Positions 584-41,422 of a stretch of 64,000 nucleotides of DNA are shown in pieces (the stretch's first letter is position 1; every line of letters begins with the position of its first letter). The notes beneath the pieces were generated by a model, which did no database searches, was not told where the DNA came from, and saw nothing but the letters and a program-made list of their open reading frames with translations. The stretch covers positions 1,116,001-1,180,000 of the forward strand of contig NZ_CP013650.1 in assembly GCF_001466725.1 (NCBI RefSeq). Reading direction: 5' to 3'. The stretch comes from Lacimicrobium alkaliphilum. GTDB lineage: Bacteria; Pseudomonadota; Gammaproteobacteria; Enterobacterales; Alteromonadaceae. A program made the position numbers and the translations under genes.

Positions 584-606
584 ACACTGTCATCAATGGT
601 TGATCG

Positions 607-655
607 CGCAGAGGCGCAAAGCCGCAGGGGATGGGGTTCTGATTTCACCTCTGCG
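607..655. repeat. Degenerate CACAGAG-type hairpin
   Basis: An 8-bp inverted repeat, CGCAGAGG at 607-614 and CCTCTGCG at 648-655, separates radA from the PilZ gene. It is a short variant of the CGCAGAG/CTCTGCG modules that fill several other intergenic spaces in this window, for example near 2100 and 35250. It could form a stem in RNA from either strand, but there is no T-run to make it a clear terminator. Confidence 0.55.
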
Positions 656-682
656 TGAGAGTAATGGGTATCAAGTATCAGG

Positions 683-714
683 CGTAGCCCGGATGCAGCG
701 AAGCGGAATCCGGG
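683..714. repeat. GTAGCCCGGAT dispersed palindromic repeat, copy 1
   Basis: The unit starts CGTAGCCCGGATGCAGCG and ends GGAATCCGGG. CCCGGAT at 688-694 pairs with ATCCGGG at 708-714. A second copy at 7871-7903 has CCCGTAT paired with ATACGGG, so one base pair has changed on both sides. Repeats of this general form are common between genes of gammaproteobacteria; their function is not established. Confidence 0.75.
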
Positions 715-1248: not shown

Positions 1249-1653
1249 ATGGCGGCAGAACGGCAACTGGAAAGACTGATCAGTCAGATGCAACCAAGGC
1301 TCGATCCCCGTACTTTTGTGTTTGCCTGCCTGGGACAGGAACAGGCAATGCCGGAGGGACTACAACCACAGATGCTGTTTATGGAAAAGGAAGGGCCAAC
1401 CCTGATTGTTGAGCAACAGCAGGCACTTAAACATGATCTCGGTTATGAGTTTGTCAGCCGTATGATCACACTGAATGTTCATTCAGCGCTGGATGCCGTC
1501 GGTTTTCTGGCCACAATTACTTCCCACCTTGCCGGTTATAATATGGGGGTGAATCCGGTTTCCGGCTTTTACCACGATCATCTGTTTGTACCCGCAGATA
1601 AGGCAGAGCTGGCTATGCAGGCACTGACAGAACTGATTGATCAACAAACGTAG
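1249..1653 (+). CDS. ACT domain-containing protein (ACT_3 / DUF2241 type)
   Basis: A 134-residue protein resembling the small stand-alone ACT proteins of the DUF2241/ACT_3 type. The second half carries the ACT-like core (EFVSRMITLNVHSALDAVG, then AGYNMGVNPVSGFYHDHLFV). ACT domains bind amino acids or similar small ligands; the ligand here is unknown. The ATG at 1249 is chosen because AGGAGA lies about 5 nt upstream, while an upstream start in another frame gives an unrelated low-complexity peptide. The gene stands alone between the PilZ gene and a repeat-filled region. Family membership is likely; a specific role cannot be given. Confidence 0.8.
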   Translation: MAAERQLERLISQMQPRLDPRTFVFACLGQEQAMPEGLQPQMLFMEKEGPTLIVEQQQALKHDLGYEFVSRMITLNVHSALDAVGFLATITSHLAGYNMGVNPVSGFYHDHLFVPADKAELAMQALTELIDQQT

Positions 1654-2210
1654 CGCAGGAAAGCGCGAGTAAAGGATAATTTCACCACAGAGGCACGAAG
1701 AACACAGAGATTTGAATGGTTAAACGCTTTGACCCATTCGTGTTTTTCGTGCCTTTAATGGTTTAAAAGTCTTTGACCACGAAAAACACTAAAGGCACCA
1801 ACAAAAGAAATATTTACCGCTGAGTCGCGGAGGGCGCAGAGGATGAAAGGTTTTATCAACTCCGCGTTCTCTGCGGCTCTGCGGTAGATTTACCATCATT
1901 AAAGGTCACTGGATGCCTGATAACGGCACTCGGGCATGACTGACTGTCGTTCCCGCATGTTGTTGGCGGGAATCCAGCGTCTTTGTTCTTTACCACGAAA
2001 AACACTAAAAGCACGAAAAAACACAGGTACTGTCATCCTGATGGCAATCAGGATCTGTTTAAGCTCAACTGAGTTCTATAGTGATCAGTGCATAAATCTC
2101 ACGCAGAGTCGCAGAGGACGCAGAGGTTTTACCGCCGTTAATACCTCTGTGTTCTCCGTGTCTCTGTGGTGAATAGCTTTTTGTTCATAATTTATAATTC
2201 AGCATTCATC
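1648..2210. repeat. Mosaic of intergenic palindromic modules, cluster 1
   Basis: About 560 bases without a convincing gene, packed with short modules. ACCACAGAGGCACGAAG begins near 1684; TTCGTGTTTTTCGTGCC lies near 1738-1754 and GACCACGAAAAACAC near 1775. CGCGGAGGGCGCAGAG near 1825 pairs with CTCCGCGTTCTCTGCG near 1860. GCAGAGGACGCAGAGG near 2111 pairs loosely with CCTCTGTGTTCTCCGTG near 2144. A GTCGTTCCCGC/GCGGGAATCCAG hairpin is at 1946-1977 and a GTCATCCTGAT hairpin at 2032-2055. The AT-rich tail TTCATAATT...CAGCATTCATCAC is at 2183-2211. The segment 1703-1769 recurs inverted at 7779-7845. The region lies between the ACT gene and the 3' end of maeA. Confidence 0.85.
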
Positions 2211-2211
2211 A

Positions 2212-3900
2212 CTAAATACTCACCCTGCGGTACTGACGATATTGCGGGGTCCAGAAATTGGCTTCTATTTTGCTGTGCAACATTTCATCGGACATTTCCA
2301 GTGCCAGCCCTTGTTCCTGTGCCACCTTACCCACTTCAAAGGCGATTTCTTTGCTCAGTTTAAATAATTCGGTGAGCGGTGGCAGTAATCCGCCCTTGCC
2401 GGTATTGGCCAGTGGTGAGGCCGCCGCCAGCGTCGTACTGGCGGCCATGAGCATCTCTTCGGTGATTAGTCTGGCCTTGGTGGCCACCACGCCCAGGCCG
2501 ATGCCCGGAAAAATATAACTGTTATTACACTGGGTGATCGGATAGGTCTTGCCCTTGTATTTAACCGGCTCGAAGGGACTGCCGGTGGCGATGATCACCT
2601 CACCCTCTGTCCATTCGATAACCTGCTCGGGTCTGGCTTCCACTTGCCGGGAGGGATTACTCAAGGGGAAAATAATTGGCAGTTTACAGTGCTGTTTCAT
2701 GGTTCTGATCACCTGTTCGGTAAACAGTCCGGCCTGACCGGAAACGCCAATCAATACATCGGGATTGGCGCAGTGGATCACATCCAGCAGGGAAGGATAG
2801 TCACCGCTGAAACTCCACTCACTGATATTGTCCTGTTGCTGGCACAGTGCCTGCTGGAAATCCCGCAATCCTTGCATGCCATCGGTGAGCAGCCCATACC
2901 TGTCGACCATATAAACCTGCCCTCTGGCCTGTTTTTCATCCAGACCTTCGGCACACATTTGTTGTACCACTTGTTCGGCGATACCGCAGCCGGCCGAGCC
3001 CGCTCCCACAAATACCACCTTTTGTTCAGATAATTTTGCCCCTTTGGTGCGACAGGCAGCCAGCAGCGTACCCACGGTTACTGCCGCAGTACCCTGAATA
3101 TCATCATTAAAACAACGTACCTGATGGCGATAGCGATTCAGCAGTGGGGTGGCATTTTGCTGGGCAAAATCTTCAAATTGGATCATGGCATCGGGCCAGC
3201 GCCGCTGTACCGCGCGGATAAATTCTTCCACAAAGGCATCGTATTCCTGCTGGCCGATACGCTTGTGGCGGGCCCCCATGTACATGGGATCATTCAGCAG
3301 TTTCTCATTATTGGTTCCCACATCCAGCATGACCGGCAGGGTATAGGCCGGGCTGATGCCGCCGCAGGCGGTGTAAAGTGACAGTTTGCCGATGGGGATG
3401 CCCATTCCGCCAATGCCCTGATCGCCCAGACCCAGGATGCGCTCGCCGTCGGTGACCACGATAACCTTAACCTTTCCTTTGGTGGCGTTATGCAGGATAT
3501 CGTCTATATGTTCGCGCTCGGCATAGGAGATAAACAGCCCCCGGGAGCTGCGATAGATATCGGAAAACTGCTCACAGGCGTCACCAACTGTAGGGGTGTA
3601 GATGATCGGCATCATCTCTTCGAGATGTTCCTGTATCAGACGGTGAAACAGAGTTTCGTTATTGTCCTGAATGGCACGCAGGTAGATATGCTTGTTAATC
3701 GGCGTATCAAAGCTTGAATATTGCATATAGGCCCGGCTCACCTGTTCCTCGATACTTTCGTAACGGGGCGGTAACAGGCCATTAAGGTTAAAGGCCTTGC
3801 GCTCTTCTGCACTGAAGGCGCTGCCCTTGTTAAGCAGAGGGGTTTCCAGCAATGAAGGGCCGGCATGGGGGATATACAAAGGGCGTTTTTTGGTTGTCAT
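2212..3900 (-). CDS. maeA: NAD-dependent malic enzyme
   Basis: Oxidatively decarboxylates malate to pyruvate with NAD, a cytoplasmic link between the TCA cycle and pyruvate. The 562-residue length fits the bacterial SfcA/MaeA type (about 565) and lacks the phosphotransacetylase tail of the longer MaeB type. Visible features are the catalytic tyrosine in [14 protein letters not shown] (Y101), the catalytic lysine in [17 protein letters not shown] (K172), metal-binding residues in FEDFAQQNA and [12 protein letters not shown], and the dinucleotide fold [17 protein letters not shown]. It is transcribed alone, and its 3' end abuts repeat cluster 1, whose hairpins may help end transcription. The 178 bases upstream separate it from the divergent sigma-factor operon. 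Confidence 0.96.
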
Positions 3901-7617: not shown

Positions 7618-7870
7618 AAAACAAACCACAAAAAGCCTATTCACCACAGAGACACGGAGGGCACAGAGAAGTAAAAGGGGCTAAACCACTAAATATCCCT
7701 GTATTTCTCTGCGCCTTTGCGCCTCTGCGAGAGGCTATTTTTAAGTTCGTGAGTTTAGTGTTTTTAGTGGTTTAAAAGCTTTTGACCACGAAAGGCACGA
7801 AAAACACGAAAGGGGTCAAAGCGTTTAACCATTCAAATCTCTGTGTTCTCTGTGTTCTCTGTGCCTTAGT
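7618..7870. repeat. Mosaic of intergenic palindromic modules, cluster 2
   Basis: The space between dnaB and smrB is filled with modules of the cluster 1 type. CACCACAGAGACACGGAG near 7641 is followed by CTCTGCGCCTTTGCGCCTCTGCG near 7705. GACCACGAAAGGCACG begins near 7784, and CTCTGTGTTCTCTGTG occurs twice near 7840-7863. The 67-bp stretch 7779-7845 is an inverted near copy of 1703-1769, including the phrase GGTTAAACGCTTTGACC. No coding sequence is supported here. Confidence 0.85.
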
Positions 7871-7903
7871 CGTAGCCCGTATAAAGCGGAGCGGAATACG
7901 GGG
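7871..7903. repeat. GTAGCCCGGAT dispersed palindromic repeat, copy 2
   Basis: The unit begins CGTAGCCCGTATAAAGCGG and ends GGAATACGGGG. CCCGTAT pairs with ATACGGG. Relative to copy 1 at 683-714 one base pair is swapped on both strands, which preserves the stem. It sits 32 bp from the 3' end of smrB and could act as part of its 3' untranslated region. Confidence 0.75.
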
Positions 7904-7935
7904 TCGCTGAAGACTGAAATCTGATAACTGTTACC

Positions 7936-10743: not shown

Positions 10744-10828
10744 CTTGCTAAAGAGTTTCCCCGGGATTTATTGAGCCTCGCTATTATGGCGGTTACAATG
10801 CCGCGCCCGGGTTATGCTGATAACCCTT

Positions 10829-10854
10829 TTCGTGAATTTCGTGTCTTTAGTGGT
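10829..10854. repeat. Fragment of the CACGAAA/TTTCGTG repeat
   Basis: TTCGTGAATTTCGTG followed by TCTTTAGTGGT is one arm of the module seen whole at 7753-7812. It ends about 25 bp before the epmC start. Read on the other strand it encodes the spurious peptide phrase FTTKDTKFTK, a known mark of this repeat in wrongly called proteins. Confidence 0.6.
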
Positions 10855-10878
10855 AAAGACAGGACCTGAGGATCGGCT

Positions 10879-28795: not shown

Positions 28796-29006
28796 AAGAA
28801 TTATTCACCACTGAGACACAGAGGGCAAAGAGAAGAGCTACTCAGCGTCTTTACGGTGAATTATGGCATCAAAATTAAATTCTATCTCGCAGAAGACGCA
28901 GAGGTTTTACGGCTTGTATTCTCCGCGTTCTTTGCGGCTCTGCGGTGAAGGCTTTTTTATTCATAATTCCATCACTCCCTCTGTGCCTCCGTGGTGAATC
29001 TTTAAT
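28796..29006. repeat. Mosaic of intergenic palindromic modules, cluster 3
   Basis: The modules include CACCACTGAGACACAGAGG near 28807, CGCAGAAGACGCAGAGG near 28888 facing CTCCGCGTTCTTTGCGG near 28921, the AT-rich TTCATAATTCC near 28960, and CTCTGTGCCTCCGTGG near 28979. The 67-bp segment 28887-28953 matches 35245-35311 at 66 positions. The cluster lies between hubP and truA; no hairpin here has the T-run of a classical terminator. Confidence 0.85.
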
Positions 29007-34876: not shown

Positions 34877-34880
34877 ACAC

Positions 34881-35340
34881 TAAAAAGAGCATTTCACCAC
34901 GAAAGGCACGAAAAACACGAAAGAAACGCCGTCATCCTGATGAAAATCAGGATCATAATTCGTTAGGGATCTCGCGGAGGCGCAAAGACGCAGAGAAATG
35001 CGGAATGGGCGCTAAGGGCCGACAGTGAATAGCTTTTTATTCATAATTCAGCATTTATCACTAATCATTTCCCCTGCGTCTCTGCGAGAGATCATTATTT
35101 GTTCGTGAATTTAGTGTTTGAAGGCCTTTTACCACGAACCACACGAAAAAATCGCCAGGAGCGATTTTTAACGCCAGCAGTTTAATGGCGGCCCGAAGGG
35201 CGCAGGACAGGGATAGTCCGGAGTAAAAGCTGTTTACCGCCGAGTCGCAGAGGACGCAGAGGTTTTACGGCTTGTATTCTCCGCGTTCTTTGCGGCTCTG
35301 CGGTGAAGGCTCTTTACCTCGAACCACACGAAAGGCAACA
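34881..35340. repeat. Mosaic of intergenic palindromic modules, cluster 4
   Basis: The largest repeat mosaic in the window. It includes CACCACGAAAGGCACG near 34888, a GTCATCCTGAT hairpin at 34931-34954 (22 of 24 bases as at 2032-2055), CGCGGAGGCGCAAAGACGC near 34974, the AT-rich tail TTCATAATTCAGCATT near 35041, CGTGAATTTAGTG near 35105, and GGGCGCAGGACAGGGATAGT near 35199. It ends with the 67-bp unit 35245-35311 shared with 28887-28953. It lies between the convergent purF and Yip1 genes. Confidence 0.87.
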
Positions 35341-35368
35341 AAAAGGCCAGTCTGAGACTGGCCTTTTC
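35341..35368 (-). terminator. Bidirectional terminator after the Yip1 gene
   Basis: AAAAGGCCAGTC pairs with GACTGGCCTTTT around TGA. It lies 20 bp past the stop codon of the minus-strand Yip1 gene, with a T-run in that direction, and can act from either side because both stem ends are A/T-rich. Confidence 0.85.
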
Positions 35369-35387
35369 AGTATGATGTTGACCGTTA

Positions 35388-39981: not shown

Positions 39982-39995
39982 TTCGGCTCCACGAA

Positions 39996-40279
39996 CTAAA
40001 AGCATGACCACAGAGGGCACGGAGGATGGAAGGGTTAAACGCTTTGCTCCTTTTCGTGCCTTTCGTGGTCAAAAGCTTTTAAACCACCACAGGACCAAAG
40101 TGTCGGGAACACGTGGAACAGCCGAAGGCTGGCTTGCGTAGCGCAGGACAGAGCGAAGTAAAAGCACGAACCCGGTTGAGAAAGACAAGACCAACTACAG
40201 AGGCACAGAGAACACGGAGGTATTAATGGTTTAATCCCCTTTACCTCTCTGTGTTCTCTGTGCCTCTGTGGTTAAATTC
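39996..40279. repeat. Mosaic of intergenic palindromic modules, cluster 5
   Basis: GACCACAGAGGGCACGGAGG near 40006 is followed by GGTTAAACGCTTTGCTCC near 40033, a third copy of the phrase at 1717 and (inverted) 7812, and by TTCGTGCCTTTCGTGGTC. GCGTAGCGCAGGACAGAGCG lies near 40135. A long hairpin joins CTACAGAGGCACAGAGAAC (from 40195) and CTCTGTGTTCTCTGTGCC (from 40247). The cluster lies between the convergent cysS and PQQ-type genes and could fold as a strong two-way stop. Confidence 0.87.
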
Positions 40280-40285
40280 TTTTAG

Positions 40286-41422
40286 TTACAATGGGTTAGA
40301 AGGTATCAGGCGTAATATCTGGCCGTCAGGATGGTCGGTGAGCAGGTAAACGGCGCCGTCCGGACCCTGGCGCACATCACGCACACGCTGGCCGATGTCG
40401 ATACGTTCCTCATGGGTGACCTTGTTGTCATCGCCGAGCTCCAGTCTGACCAACTGGCGAAATTTCAGTGAGCCTACTAACAGATTGCCCTGCCAGTCGC
40501 TGAAGGTTTTGGCAGTGTAAAAGGTCATGCCACTGGGCGCGATAGAGGGCACCCAGTAATGCAGTGGCTGCTCCATTCCGGATTTTTTGGTGTCGCCAAT
40601 TTCACCACCACCATACTCTTCGCCATAGGTGATCTCTGGCCAGCCATAGTTCTTCGTCGCTTCGGCGATATTAATTTCATCACCGCCCTGGGGACCATGC
40701 TCGTGGGTCCAGAGTTCGCCAGTTTGCGGATGCAGCGTCGCACCCTGAATATTGCGATGACCGTAAGACCAGATATCTGACAGTGCCTTGTCATTATCGG
40801 TATAGGGATTGTCTTTTGGGATATCACCATTTGGCAGTACACGTACTACTTTGCCATAGTGGCTATCAAGCTCCTGCGCGCCCTGACGCTGTGAACCGCG
40901 ATCCCCTAAGGTAATAAACAATGCACCTTCACGGTCAAATACCAGACGACTGCCAAAATGATGGCCGGTATCAATTTTAGGCCTGGCACTGAAAATAACC
41001 TGCAATTCGCTCAGGCCCTGCTCTTCTAAAATCGCGCTGGCAACGGCAGTGCTGCTTTTCTCGCTGCCGGAAACCGGTTCGCTGAAGCTGAAATAAATAC
41101 GCTGGTTCTCGCTGAACATAGGATCGATGGTAACATCCAGCAGACCGCCCTGATTTTTTACCAGAATCTCCGGTAAGCCGTTTAACGGCTCTGATTTATT
41201 GCCATCGGCATCGACAATTCTGAGTTTACCGGTTCGTTCGGTGACCAGCATACGGCCATCAGGCAAAAAGGTCATCCCCCAGGGATGCTGCAGCCCGGAA
41301 GTCACGACTTCCACCTTAATACTGGCCTGTTCACTGTCAATTTGCGCCGGGGTGTTGGCGCACGCTGCAGAGCTCAGGCAAAGGGTTAAACTGGCAAAGA
41401 GTAGCGCTAGGTTACGGGTCAT
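40286..41422 (-). CDS. PQQ-dependent sugar dehydrogenase family protein
   Basis: A 378-residue periplasmic protein of the soluble aldose dehydrogenase (YliI/Asd-type) beta-propeller family. The N-terminus is a signal sequence with CLSSAAC, which may be cleaved or lipid-modified. Family motifs include LQHPWGMTFLPDGRMLVTER, HHFGSRLVFDREG, GHRNIQGATLHP, WTHEHGPQGGDEIN and NYGWPEITYGEEY. Related enzymes oxidise aldose sugars with PQQ and pass electrons to the respiratory chain; the substrate here is unknown and the PQQ synthesis genes are not in view. It is transcribed alone. Confidence 0.87.
   Translation of the reverse strand: MTRNLALLFASLTLCLSSAACANTPAQIDSEQASIKVEVVTSGLQHPWGMTFLPDGRMLVTERTGKLRIVDADGNKSEPLNGLPEILVKNQGGLLDVTIDPMFSENQRIYFSFSEPVSGSEKSSTAVASAILEEQGLSELQVIFSARPKIDTGHHFGSRLVFDREGALFITLGDRGSQRQGAQELDSHYGKVVRVLPNGDIPKDNPYTDNDKALSDIWSYGHRNIQGATLHPQTGELWTHEHGPQGGDEINIAEATKNYGWPEITYGEEYGGGEIGDTKKSGMEQPLHYWVPSIAPSGMTFYTAKTFSDWQGNLLVGSLKFRQLVRLELGDDNKVTHEERIDIGQRVRDVRQGPDGAVYLLTDHPDGQILRLIPSNPL

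What the first reader, a model, noticed from the sequence alone, without database searches (positions are those of the whole stretch)
1648..2210. A dispersed family of CACAGAG / CACGAAA palindromic modules
The sequence shows purine-rich arms (ACCACAGAG, CACGAAA, CGCAGAG) facing pyrimidine-rich partners at 607-655, 1648-2210, 7618-7870, 10829-10854, 28796-29006, 34881-35340 and 39996-40279. They make up most of the long gene-free DNA in this window, always between genes and often at convergent or 3' ends. Repeats of this look occur in many bacteria and cause spurious protein calls such as FTTKDTKFTK, but I know no accepted name, origin or function. Density near 3' ends suggests a role in transcript ends or chromosome structure.
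Basis: partly seen in the sequence, partly recalled or inferred. Interest (0 to 1): 0.75.

Follow-up and report, generated by a model that had tools for sequence, protein, structure and literature searches.

The report
Nuclease-gene mobile palindromes across bacteria
The odd repeated palindromes between genes here appear to be the gene-less relatives of a tiny mobile element, found in many bacterial phyla, whose only gene makes a small nuclease of unknown role called GxxExxY.

Summary
Palindromes built from 9-bp units (CACAGAG, CGCAGAG, CACGAAA) recur between genes: 16 perfect arms in the window against 0 for a reversed-pattern control; 297 against 27 in the genome with up to two mismatches. 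They favour convergent gaps.

Not found in my literature searches: the same arms, inverted, bracket the gene of GxxExxY, a ~123-aa PD-(D/E)XK nuclease. Of 80 such genes, 68 have inverted flanking repeats above the 95% background level, 42 of the 50 not chosen for arms among them. In this genus one sister species has two GxxExxY genes, one in CACAGAG arms, one in CACGAAA arms, the genus's repeat kinds; the third has none and almost no arms. A gene-bearing element has a clean empty site in the window's genome; the finding's array is a bare 34-bp gap in the third species.

Best reading: a widespread mobile family in which GxxExxY elements are autonomous and the palindromes are non-autonomous derivatives, as REPINs are to RAYTs but with a Cas4-like nuclease. 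Movement itself is inferred. A T-rich tract beside many arms leaves a side role at transcript ends open.

The parts
603..658 (.). degenerate palindromic module (CGCAGAG type)
   Evidence: sequence, one-mismatch arm at 607; gap is 83 bp without it in G449
1681..1768 (.). palindromic module, left arm CACAGAG type (1686), right arm CACGAAA type (1736-1764, two mismatches): hybrid
1773..1805 (+). single CACGAAA/CACTAAA arm
   Evidence: direct repeat with 1989-2021
1810..1892 (.). palindromic module, CGCAGAG type
   Evidence: perfect arms at 1818 (+) and 1860 (-); DNA hairpin z -6.4
1989..2021 (+). single CACGAAA arm
   Evidence: perfect arm at 1994
2097..2176 (.). palindromic module, left arm CGCAGAG, right arm CACAGAG: hybrid
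   Evidence: perfect arms at 2102 (+) and 2145 (-); hairpin z -4.5
1654..2211 (.). whole array of the finding, between two convergent genes; bare 34-bp gap in G449, different smaller array (185 bp) in G448
7636..7873 (.). array: CACAGAG/CGCAGAG module, CACTAAA arm, CACGAAA + CACAGAG module; gap is 72 bp in G449
   Evidence: perfect or one-mismatch arms at 7645, 7707, 7745, 7787, 7839
10826..10855 (-). single CACGAAA/CACTAAA arm
   Evidence: perfect arm at 10828
28803..29000 (.). two nested or adjacent degenerate palindromes; the inner one folds no better than shuffles (z -1.5)
   Evidence: inverted repeat 28803-28825/28977-28999; arms at 28809, 28921
34889..35348 (.). array of CACGAAA arms and CGCAGAG palindromes beside a terminator-like stem (35339-35369) that the arm-free site in G449 also has
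   Evidence: gap is 29 bp in G449
39990..40290 (.). CACAGAG/CACGAAA hybrid module and a strong CACAGAG palindrome (40193-40273, 93% complementary)
   Evidence: z -10.0; gap is 89 bp in G449

Best explanation
The palindromes are non-autonomous copies of a mobile-element family whose gene-bearing form is: inverted arm of about 27-30 bp made of three 9-bp units with outer ends like TTCACC...GGTGAA, then one gene for the GxxExxY nuclease, then the matching inverted arm; about 450 bp in the copy measured. Shown: arms bracket the gene in many phyla; arm type and gene go together within this genus; a gene-bearing copy and gene-less arrays are absent from orthologous sites in sister species; a deleted intermediate exists; the catalytic residues are conserved. 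Inferred: the nuclease acts in trans on the hairpin or cruciform that the arms form (on single-stranded lagging-strand DNA or by extrusion), cuts at the element ends, and host replication or repair copies the element into intergenic breaks; selection then leaves copies mainly between convergent genes. The window genome has one such gene (G000:C1:89176-89529, CACGAAG arms), outside the window.
Against: No transposition was seen and no target-site duplication could be called at the empty site. Most arms in G000 are CGCAGAG or CACAGAG (26 of 31 unselected perfect arms) but its only GxxExxY sits in CACGAAG arms; only sister G448 has a CACAGAG-bracketed gene. Left and right arms of gene-less palindromes are often of different kinds: 1 of 7 unselected pairs alike, 12 of 26 in a sample partly chosen by pattern. 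20 of 62 arm-positive and 23 of 65 gene-positive Pseudomonadota genomes lack the partner by these tests. Arms of the gene's own element count as arms, so that test is partly circular for genomes with one or two. 12 of 80 genes show no inverted flank above the 95% level; a neighbouring palindrome could also raise a score; and many of the 80 are relatives at one site, so not independent. In one search six other genomes have 7 to 57 GCCAAG matches, though in the five of them where I had a GxxExxY locus that gene had other arms. 49 of 106 loci had no partner arm within 180 bp. A PD-(D/E)XK nuclease alone is not a known transposase as far as I recall.
Confidence: 0.75

Rival explanations
1. GxxExxY is a passenger or homing-type gene: it invades the loops of palindromes that some other machinery (host replication slippage, another transposase) spreads.
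For: About 300 arms to one gene in G000; 20 of 62 arm-positive Pseudomonadota genomes have no gene; most G000 arms are not of its gene's kind; a small nuclease gene in a loop is how homing genes sit in introns (recalled).
Against: Arm similarity tracks protein identity (61 genes, r 0.44; 0.35 for pairs under 75% identical; 0 of 999 permutations reach it), though common descent would do the same; G448's two distantly related genes sit each in its own arm kind; a gene-bearing copy has an empty site with no palindrome in either sister; G449 lacks the gene and nearly all arms.
Confidence: 0.15
2. REP/REPIN elements mobilised by a Y1 (HUH) RAYT transposase.
For: Same look: hundreds of intergenic palindromes, mosaics, 3' bias; the genome has three Y1 transposase genes.
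Against: No arms within 1.5 kb of any of the three; no GTAG or CGTC tag in the 12 bases outside the arms, where no column is over 71% one base, and the outer ends TTCACC/GGTGAA pair; the window also has separate GTAG-tagged repeats that fit RAYTs better (681-714).
Confidence: 0.04
3. Host-made functional elements: transcription terminators, mRNA 3' stabilisers or nucleoid-protein sites.
For: Strong hairpins, bias to convergent gaps; a T-rich tract outward of many arms: TTTT within 24 bases in 15 of 31 unselected arms, background 18%. I raised these odds from 0.04 to 0.06 when that control came in, and lowered the best explanation from 0.77 to 0.75.
Against: Nearly absent in a sister species and no match to the arm pattern in 14 of 14 sampled same-family genomes; the T tract mostly starts 8 or more bases after the stem, and may be part of the element or its target; a terminator-like stem exists apart from one array and without it in G449. 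A host use of single copies, or an element that carries a terminator, is not excluded.
Confidence: 0.06

Closest known systems
REPIN/REP elements with RAYT (TnpA-REP) transposases
   Same: Single-copy nuclease gene, many short intergenic palindromes, mosaics, bias to 3' ends, patchy spread (PMC3733652 abstract and passages; PMC6006769 abstract; one-RAYT-to-many ratio recalled)
   Different: Enzyme is a PD-(D/E)XK nuclease, not a Y1 HUH enzyme; no GTAG/CGTC tag seen; arms are tandem 9-bp units; arms sit close to the gene's start and stop
MITEs of insertion sequences
   Same: Gene-bearing and gene-less copies share terminal inverted repeats; a deleted intermediate exists (L139)
   Different: No known transposase; gene-less copies are near-complete palindromes of about 74 bp; target duplication not resolved
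GxxExxY protein, TIGR04256 / PF13366 PDDEXK_3
   Same: The encoded protein is a full-length member (148-149 bits, cut-off 35; Pfam)
   Different: Known to me as an uncharacterised protein; the bracketing arms and gene-less palindromes are the new part. Library search for GxxExxY gave 2 papers, both passing mentions; PF13366 gave 1, likewise
Cas4 / lambda-type exonuclease / Hjc nucleases
   Same: Fold and DxnExK plus QxxxY residues
   Different: Standalone 123-aa protein inside a mobile palindrome; I did not search the loci for CRISPR or recombinase partners

Membership tests
TIGR04256 GxxExxY / PF13366 PDDEXK_3 (protein) | profile score over the curated cut-off | tested here: met
   149.2 bits against 35; 144.5 against 22
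TIGR04256 GxxExxY / PF13366 PDDEXK_3 (protein) | PD-(D/E)XK catalytic residues | tested here: met
   D67 0.99, E77 1.00, K79 1.00 in 80 genes; Q91 0.96, Y95 0.99; model pLDDT 93.5
REP/REPIN-RAYT | high-copy intergenic palindromes, often in inverted pairs or mosaics | tested here: met
REP/REPIN-RAYT | unpaired GTAG or CGTC tag at one end | tested here: not met
   no such tag in the column counts outside or inside the arms; outer ends pair
REP/REPIN-RAYT | Y1 (HUH) transposase gene flanked by the same palindromes | tested here: not met
   0 of 3 Y1 genes of this genome have arms within 1.5 kb; other genomes not tested
MITE with an autonomous partner | gene-less and gene-bearing copies share terminal inverted repeats | tested here: met
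MITE with an autonomous partner | presence/absence at orthologous sites | tested here: met
MITE with an autonomous partner | target-site duplication | tested here: inconclusive
   junction in G000 is TAGGTTATTTATG; ends ambiguous by a few bases
MITE with an autonomous partner | partner gene is a transposase able to move it | not testable with these tools
   needs biochemistry or a mobility assay
Intrinsic terminators | GC-rich stem followed by a T run | tested here: inconclusive
   the scan of two arrays found sites only outside the arms, but it takes loops of 3-8 only and these loops are about 20; T-rich tracts do occur outward of about half the arms, mostly not adjacent to the stem

The most novel reading that the evidence does not exclude
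GxxExxY elements are a new class of autonomous prokaryotic mobile element, perhaps among the smallest, that moves with a standalone Cas4/lambda-exonuclease-like nuclease acting on its own tandem-unit hairpin arms, and it is the source of a very widespread unexplained repeat family in bacteria.
Probability: 0.5. Interest if true: 0.95.

Novelty: new variant of a known kind. Interest (0 to 1): 0.86.

Why it matters
Tying them to one small nuclease gene gives a common but uncharacterised protein family (7999 relatives in one capped search) a probable role, and turns 'what are these palindromes' into a question a single gene deletion or a cleavage assay can answer. A mobile element run by a PD-(D/E)XK nuclease alone would widen the list of enzymes known to move DNA.

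Tried and rejected
Rejected or not borne out: RAYT link; known RNA families (no Rfam match in the window at gathering thresholds); plasmids as main vehicle (8 of 72,556 plasmid records carry a relative, all typed non-mobilizable). Terminator role: not rejected outright. A parallel idea, that the four-helix-bundle gene (TIGR02436) is bracketed in the same way by another repeat family, was not met (inverted-repeat score 20, background 95% level 21). No solved structure matches by sequence. Left/right co-evolution at one shared site was weak: 8 genes before the same downstream gene, matched mean 41 against 28 mismatched, own partner best in 3 of 8. Literature: searches for FTTKDTKFTK, CACAGAG, CCACAGAG, GxxExxY, PF13366/PDDEXK_3, REP/RAYT and palindromes with nucleases gave no paper in their listings that joins these repeats to this gene; bioRxiv and most subscription journals are not held. 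Papers seen: PMC3733652 abstract and passages; PMC6006769 abstract; PMC8934634 abstract and one passage; PMC12085832 and PMC9756366 one passage each; the rest as listings.

Full report
WHAT IS THERE. The window holds arrays of short palindromes between genes. An arm is three units of about 9 bp: CACAGAG-N-CACAGAG-NN-CACAGAG, the same with CGCAGAG, or CACGAAA (and CACTAAA) spaced by two bases. Two arms face each other across a loop of about 20 bases, with outer ends like TTCACC and GGTGAA; 26 sampled inward pairs have a median span of 74.5 bp. Left and right arms are often of different kinds: 1 of 7 unselected pairs alike, 12 of 26 in a sample that includes 30 loci chosen by a CACAGAG/CGCAGAG pattern. 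Of 31 unselected perfect arms 18 are CGCAGAG, 8 CACAGAG, 5 CACGAAA-like. Four of five window modules are far more stable as single DNA strands than shuffles, one is not. Outward of the stem a T-rich tract is common: TTTT within 24 bases in 15 of 31 unselected arms against 18% of windows in arm-free gaps.

IS IT MORE THAN CHANCE. Perfect three-unit arms: 16 in the window, 0 for the reversed pattern, all outside ORFs; 17 and 0 in 400 kb taken at even spacing, 14 of the 17 outside ORFs. Genome: 150 forward and 147 reverse with up to two mismatches against 16 and 11; 58 and 54 with a stricter pattern against 0 and 0. With one mismatch arms occur in 5 of 9 convergent, 2 of 23 tandem and 0 of 10 divergent gaps of the window (Fisher p 0.003), and in 5 of 49, 2 of 172 and 0 of 57 in the stretches (p 0.002). 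ORF calls are mechanical (longest ORFs of 100 aa or more).

HOW FAR IT REACHES. Titles name Planctomycetes, Verrucomicrobia, Kiritimatiellae, Acidobacteria, Chloroflexi, Cyanobacteria, Bacteroidetes, Spirochaetes, Gemmatimonadetes, Armatimonadetes, Nitrospirae, Elusimicrobia, Sumerlaeota, several classes of Proteobacteria, Myxococcales, Firmicutes such as Sporomusa, and one Methanothrix archaeon. Taking the first match of each locus, 10 lie too near an end; of the other 106, 51 have an inward partner arm within 180 bp (17 of 2320 random positions do), 6 an outward one only, 49 none.

THE GENE. The lead was my own recollection that GxxExxY genes seem to sit among such sequences; it comes from no call or paper. 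I searched TIGR04256. The genome has one such gene, and it lies exactly between two inverted arms of the CACGAAG kind, the first ending at the start codon and the second beginning just after the stop. In the 116 loci, three ORFs of 50 aa or more match it (L055 Algoriphagus, L082 Scytonema, L146 a Verrucomicrobiales genome), each bracketed by arms. Without choosing the gene first, I asked what arms bracket at 206-2600 bp in those loci at a strict match score: eight rows from six elements, of which the only ORFs of 36 aa or more are GxxExxY in L055 and L082 and, in L139 (Prevotella; two rows, one element), the N-terminal piece of a GxxExxY whose further pieces lie between the same arms, an internally deleted copy; the other three elements have ORFs of 26-32 aa; L146 fell below the score.

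TEST ON 80 GENES. I took 80 GxxExxY genes: 50 of the 103 matches from Pseudomonadota (30 given as loci, 20 chosen, 19 of them outside family f39; 65 of 398 genomes had the gene) and 30 of the 114 matches from 50 arm-bearing genomes. L208 and L226 are the genes already seen in L055 and L082. Flanks were compared with 1402 pseudo-gene positions in the same loci. Median inverted-repeat score 41 against a mean of 16; 68 of 80 exceed the 95% level and 61 the 99% level; of the 50 not chosen for arms 42 and 37. A score can also come from a neighbouring palindrome, and many f39 genes are relatives at one site. With two more genes from G448, matched flanks have median 41 and mismatched flanks 16; the gene's own right flank is the best of 82 for 31 and in the top three for 49. 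Arms need not be CACAGAG: L225 has GCCAAG units and L190 GGCGCGAA units, yet left and right match. Arm similarity follows protein identity (61 genes with a score over 25, r 0.44, 0 of 999 permutations); common descent alone could give this. Of eight plasmid records with a relative I opened four (Gemmatirosa, Bernardetia, Sphingomonas, Bacteroides): all four have inverted flanks, in Gemmatirosa with the arms turned the other way.

WITHIN ONE GENUS. Three species are held. G000, the window's: 112 arms, one GxxExxY. G448: 148 arms, two genes. G449: one arm, no gene (this pattern covers the CACAGAG/CGCAGAG kinds only). G448's two proteins are 45% identical over 97 residues; one sits in CACAGAG arms, the other in CACGAAA arms, the repeat kinds of the genus. 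The 14 sampled genomes of other genera of the family have neither pattern match nor gene. The CACAGAG-bracketed copy of G448 lies between genes that I read by eye as relA and mazG (recalled names); in G000 the same junction is TAGGTTATTTATG with nothing inserted, and G449 has about 100 bp of other sequence there. The array of the finding (own 1626-2213) corresponds to 34 bp in G449 and to a different 185-bp array in G448; the other four gaps that I printed are also arm-free in G449. In syntenic stretches, all arm kinds, one mismatch: 21 arms in 64 kb (own, control 2), 9 in 80 kb (G448, control 1), 0 in 80 kb (G449, control 1). Beside the array at 34877-35387 a terminator-like stem is present both here and in G449.

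CO-OCCURRENCE. In 398 Pseudomonadota genomes: 42 have both, 20 arms only, 23 gene only, 313 neither (p 5e-25); without the dominant family f39 7, 8, 13, 296 (p 5e-6); within f39 35, 12, 10, 17 (p 0.003). Arms of the gene's own element are counted, so this is partly circular for low counts. Of 50 arm-bearing genomes that I picked for taxonomic spread out of the 116 loci, 39 have the gene. A prediction: the GCCAAG arm of the GxxExxY in G402 was searched in those 50 genomes; 10 have matches and G402 has the most (69, control 0), with inward pairs but also overlapping matches in tandem runs. G414 has 57, its listed ones a tandem array; G441 25, G421 18, G447 12, G404 9, G429 7, although the GxxExxY loci that I held from five of these six have other arms. 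So the prediction was met but is not specific.

HOW IT PROBABLY WORKS. Shown: bracket structure, arm/gene matching, presence and absence between species, a deleted intermediate, a conserved active site. Inferred: the nuclease recognises the arm hairpin and makes the cut that frees or copies the element; copies without the gene can be served in trans; selection keeps those between convergent genes. Not shown: movement, cutting, target duplication. The chief rival is that the gene is a passenger that homes into palindromes spread by something else.

KNOWN OR NEW. It works like REPIN/RAYT and like MITEs, but fails two defining tests of REP/RAYT in this genome (no Y1 gene with arms, no GTAG/CGTC tag). 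I found no paper joining these repeats to GxxExxY in the held library; this does not cover bioRxiv or most subscription journals.

Noticed in passing
window 681-714 and 7868-7904: GTAG-tagged palindromes (GTAGCCCGGATGCAGCGAAGCGGAATCCGGG) of REP look; the genome also has three Y1 transposase genes that could be their partners.
   Followed up: no
window 1897-1985; G449 C12:185367-186047 and C18:192191-192955: A further family, GGTCACTGGATGCCTGATAACGGCACTCGGGCATGAC, single here but in arrays in the sister G449 that has almost no CACAGAG arms.
   Followed up: no
window 2176-2216 and 35030-35070; L151: Repeats like ATTCATAATTCAGCATTCATCAC; similar sequence flanks the four-helix-bundle (TIGR02436) gene of this genome, but the inverted repeat there is not above background.
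   Followed up: partly
window arms, outward 24 bases: T-rich tract (as in GGTGAATAGGCTTTTT) outside about half of the arms, so the other side of a palindrome reads A-rich: part of the element, a target preference or a terminator.
   Followed up: partly
L139 1071-1420: Internally deleted GxxExxY copy between intact arms in a Prevotella genome, a possible step from gene-bearing element to bare palindrome.
   Followed up: partly
These look like old insertions kept at one site.
   Followed up: partly
G401 (Chloroflexaceae genome of L037): The reversed control pattern GAACCG x 3 gave 69 and 82 matches, so a GAACCG tandem family is abundant there.
   Followed up: no
L001, L008, L009, L013, L014: Arms joined to another repeat, of the look TGTAGGGTCGAATTTATTCGACAAATATCC, in the same mosaics.
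   Followed up: no
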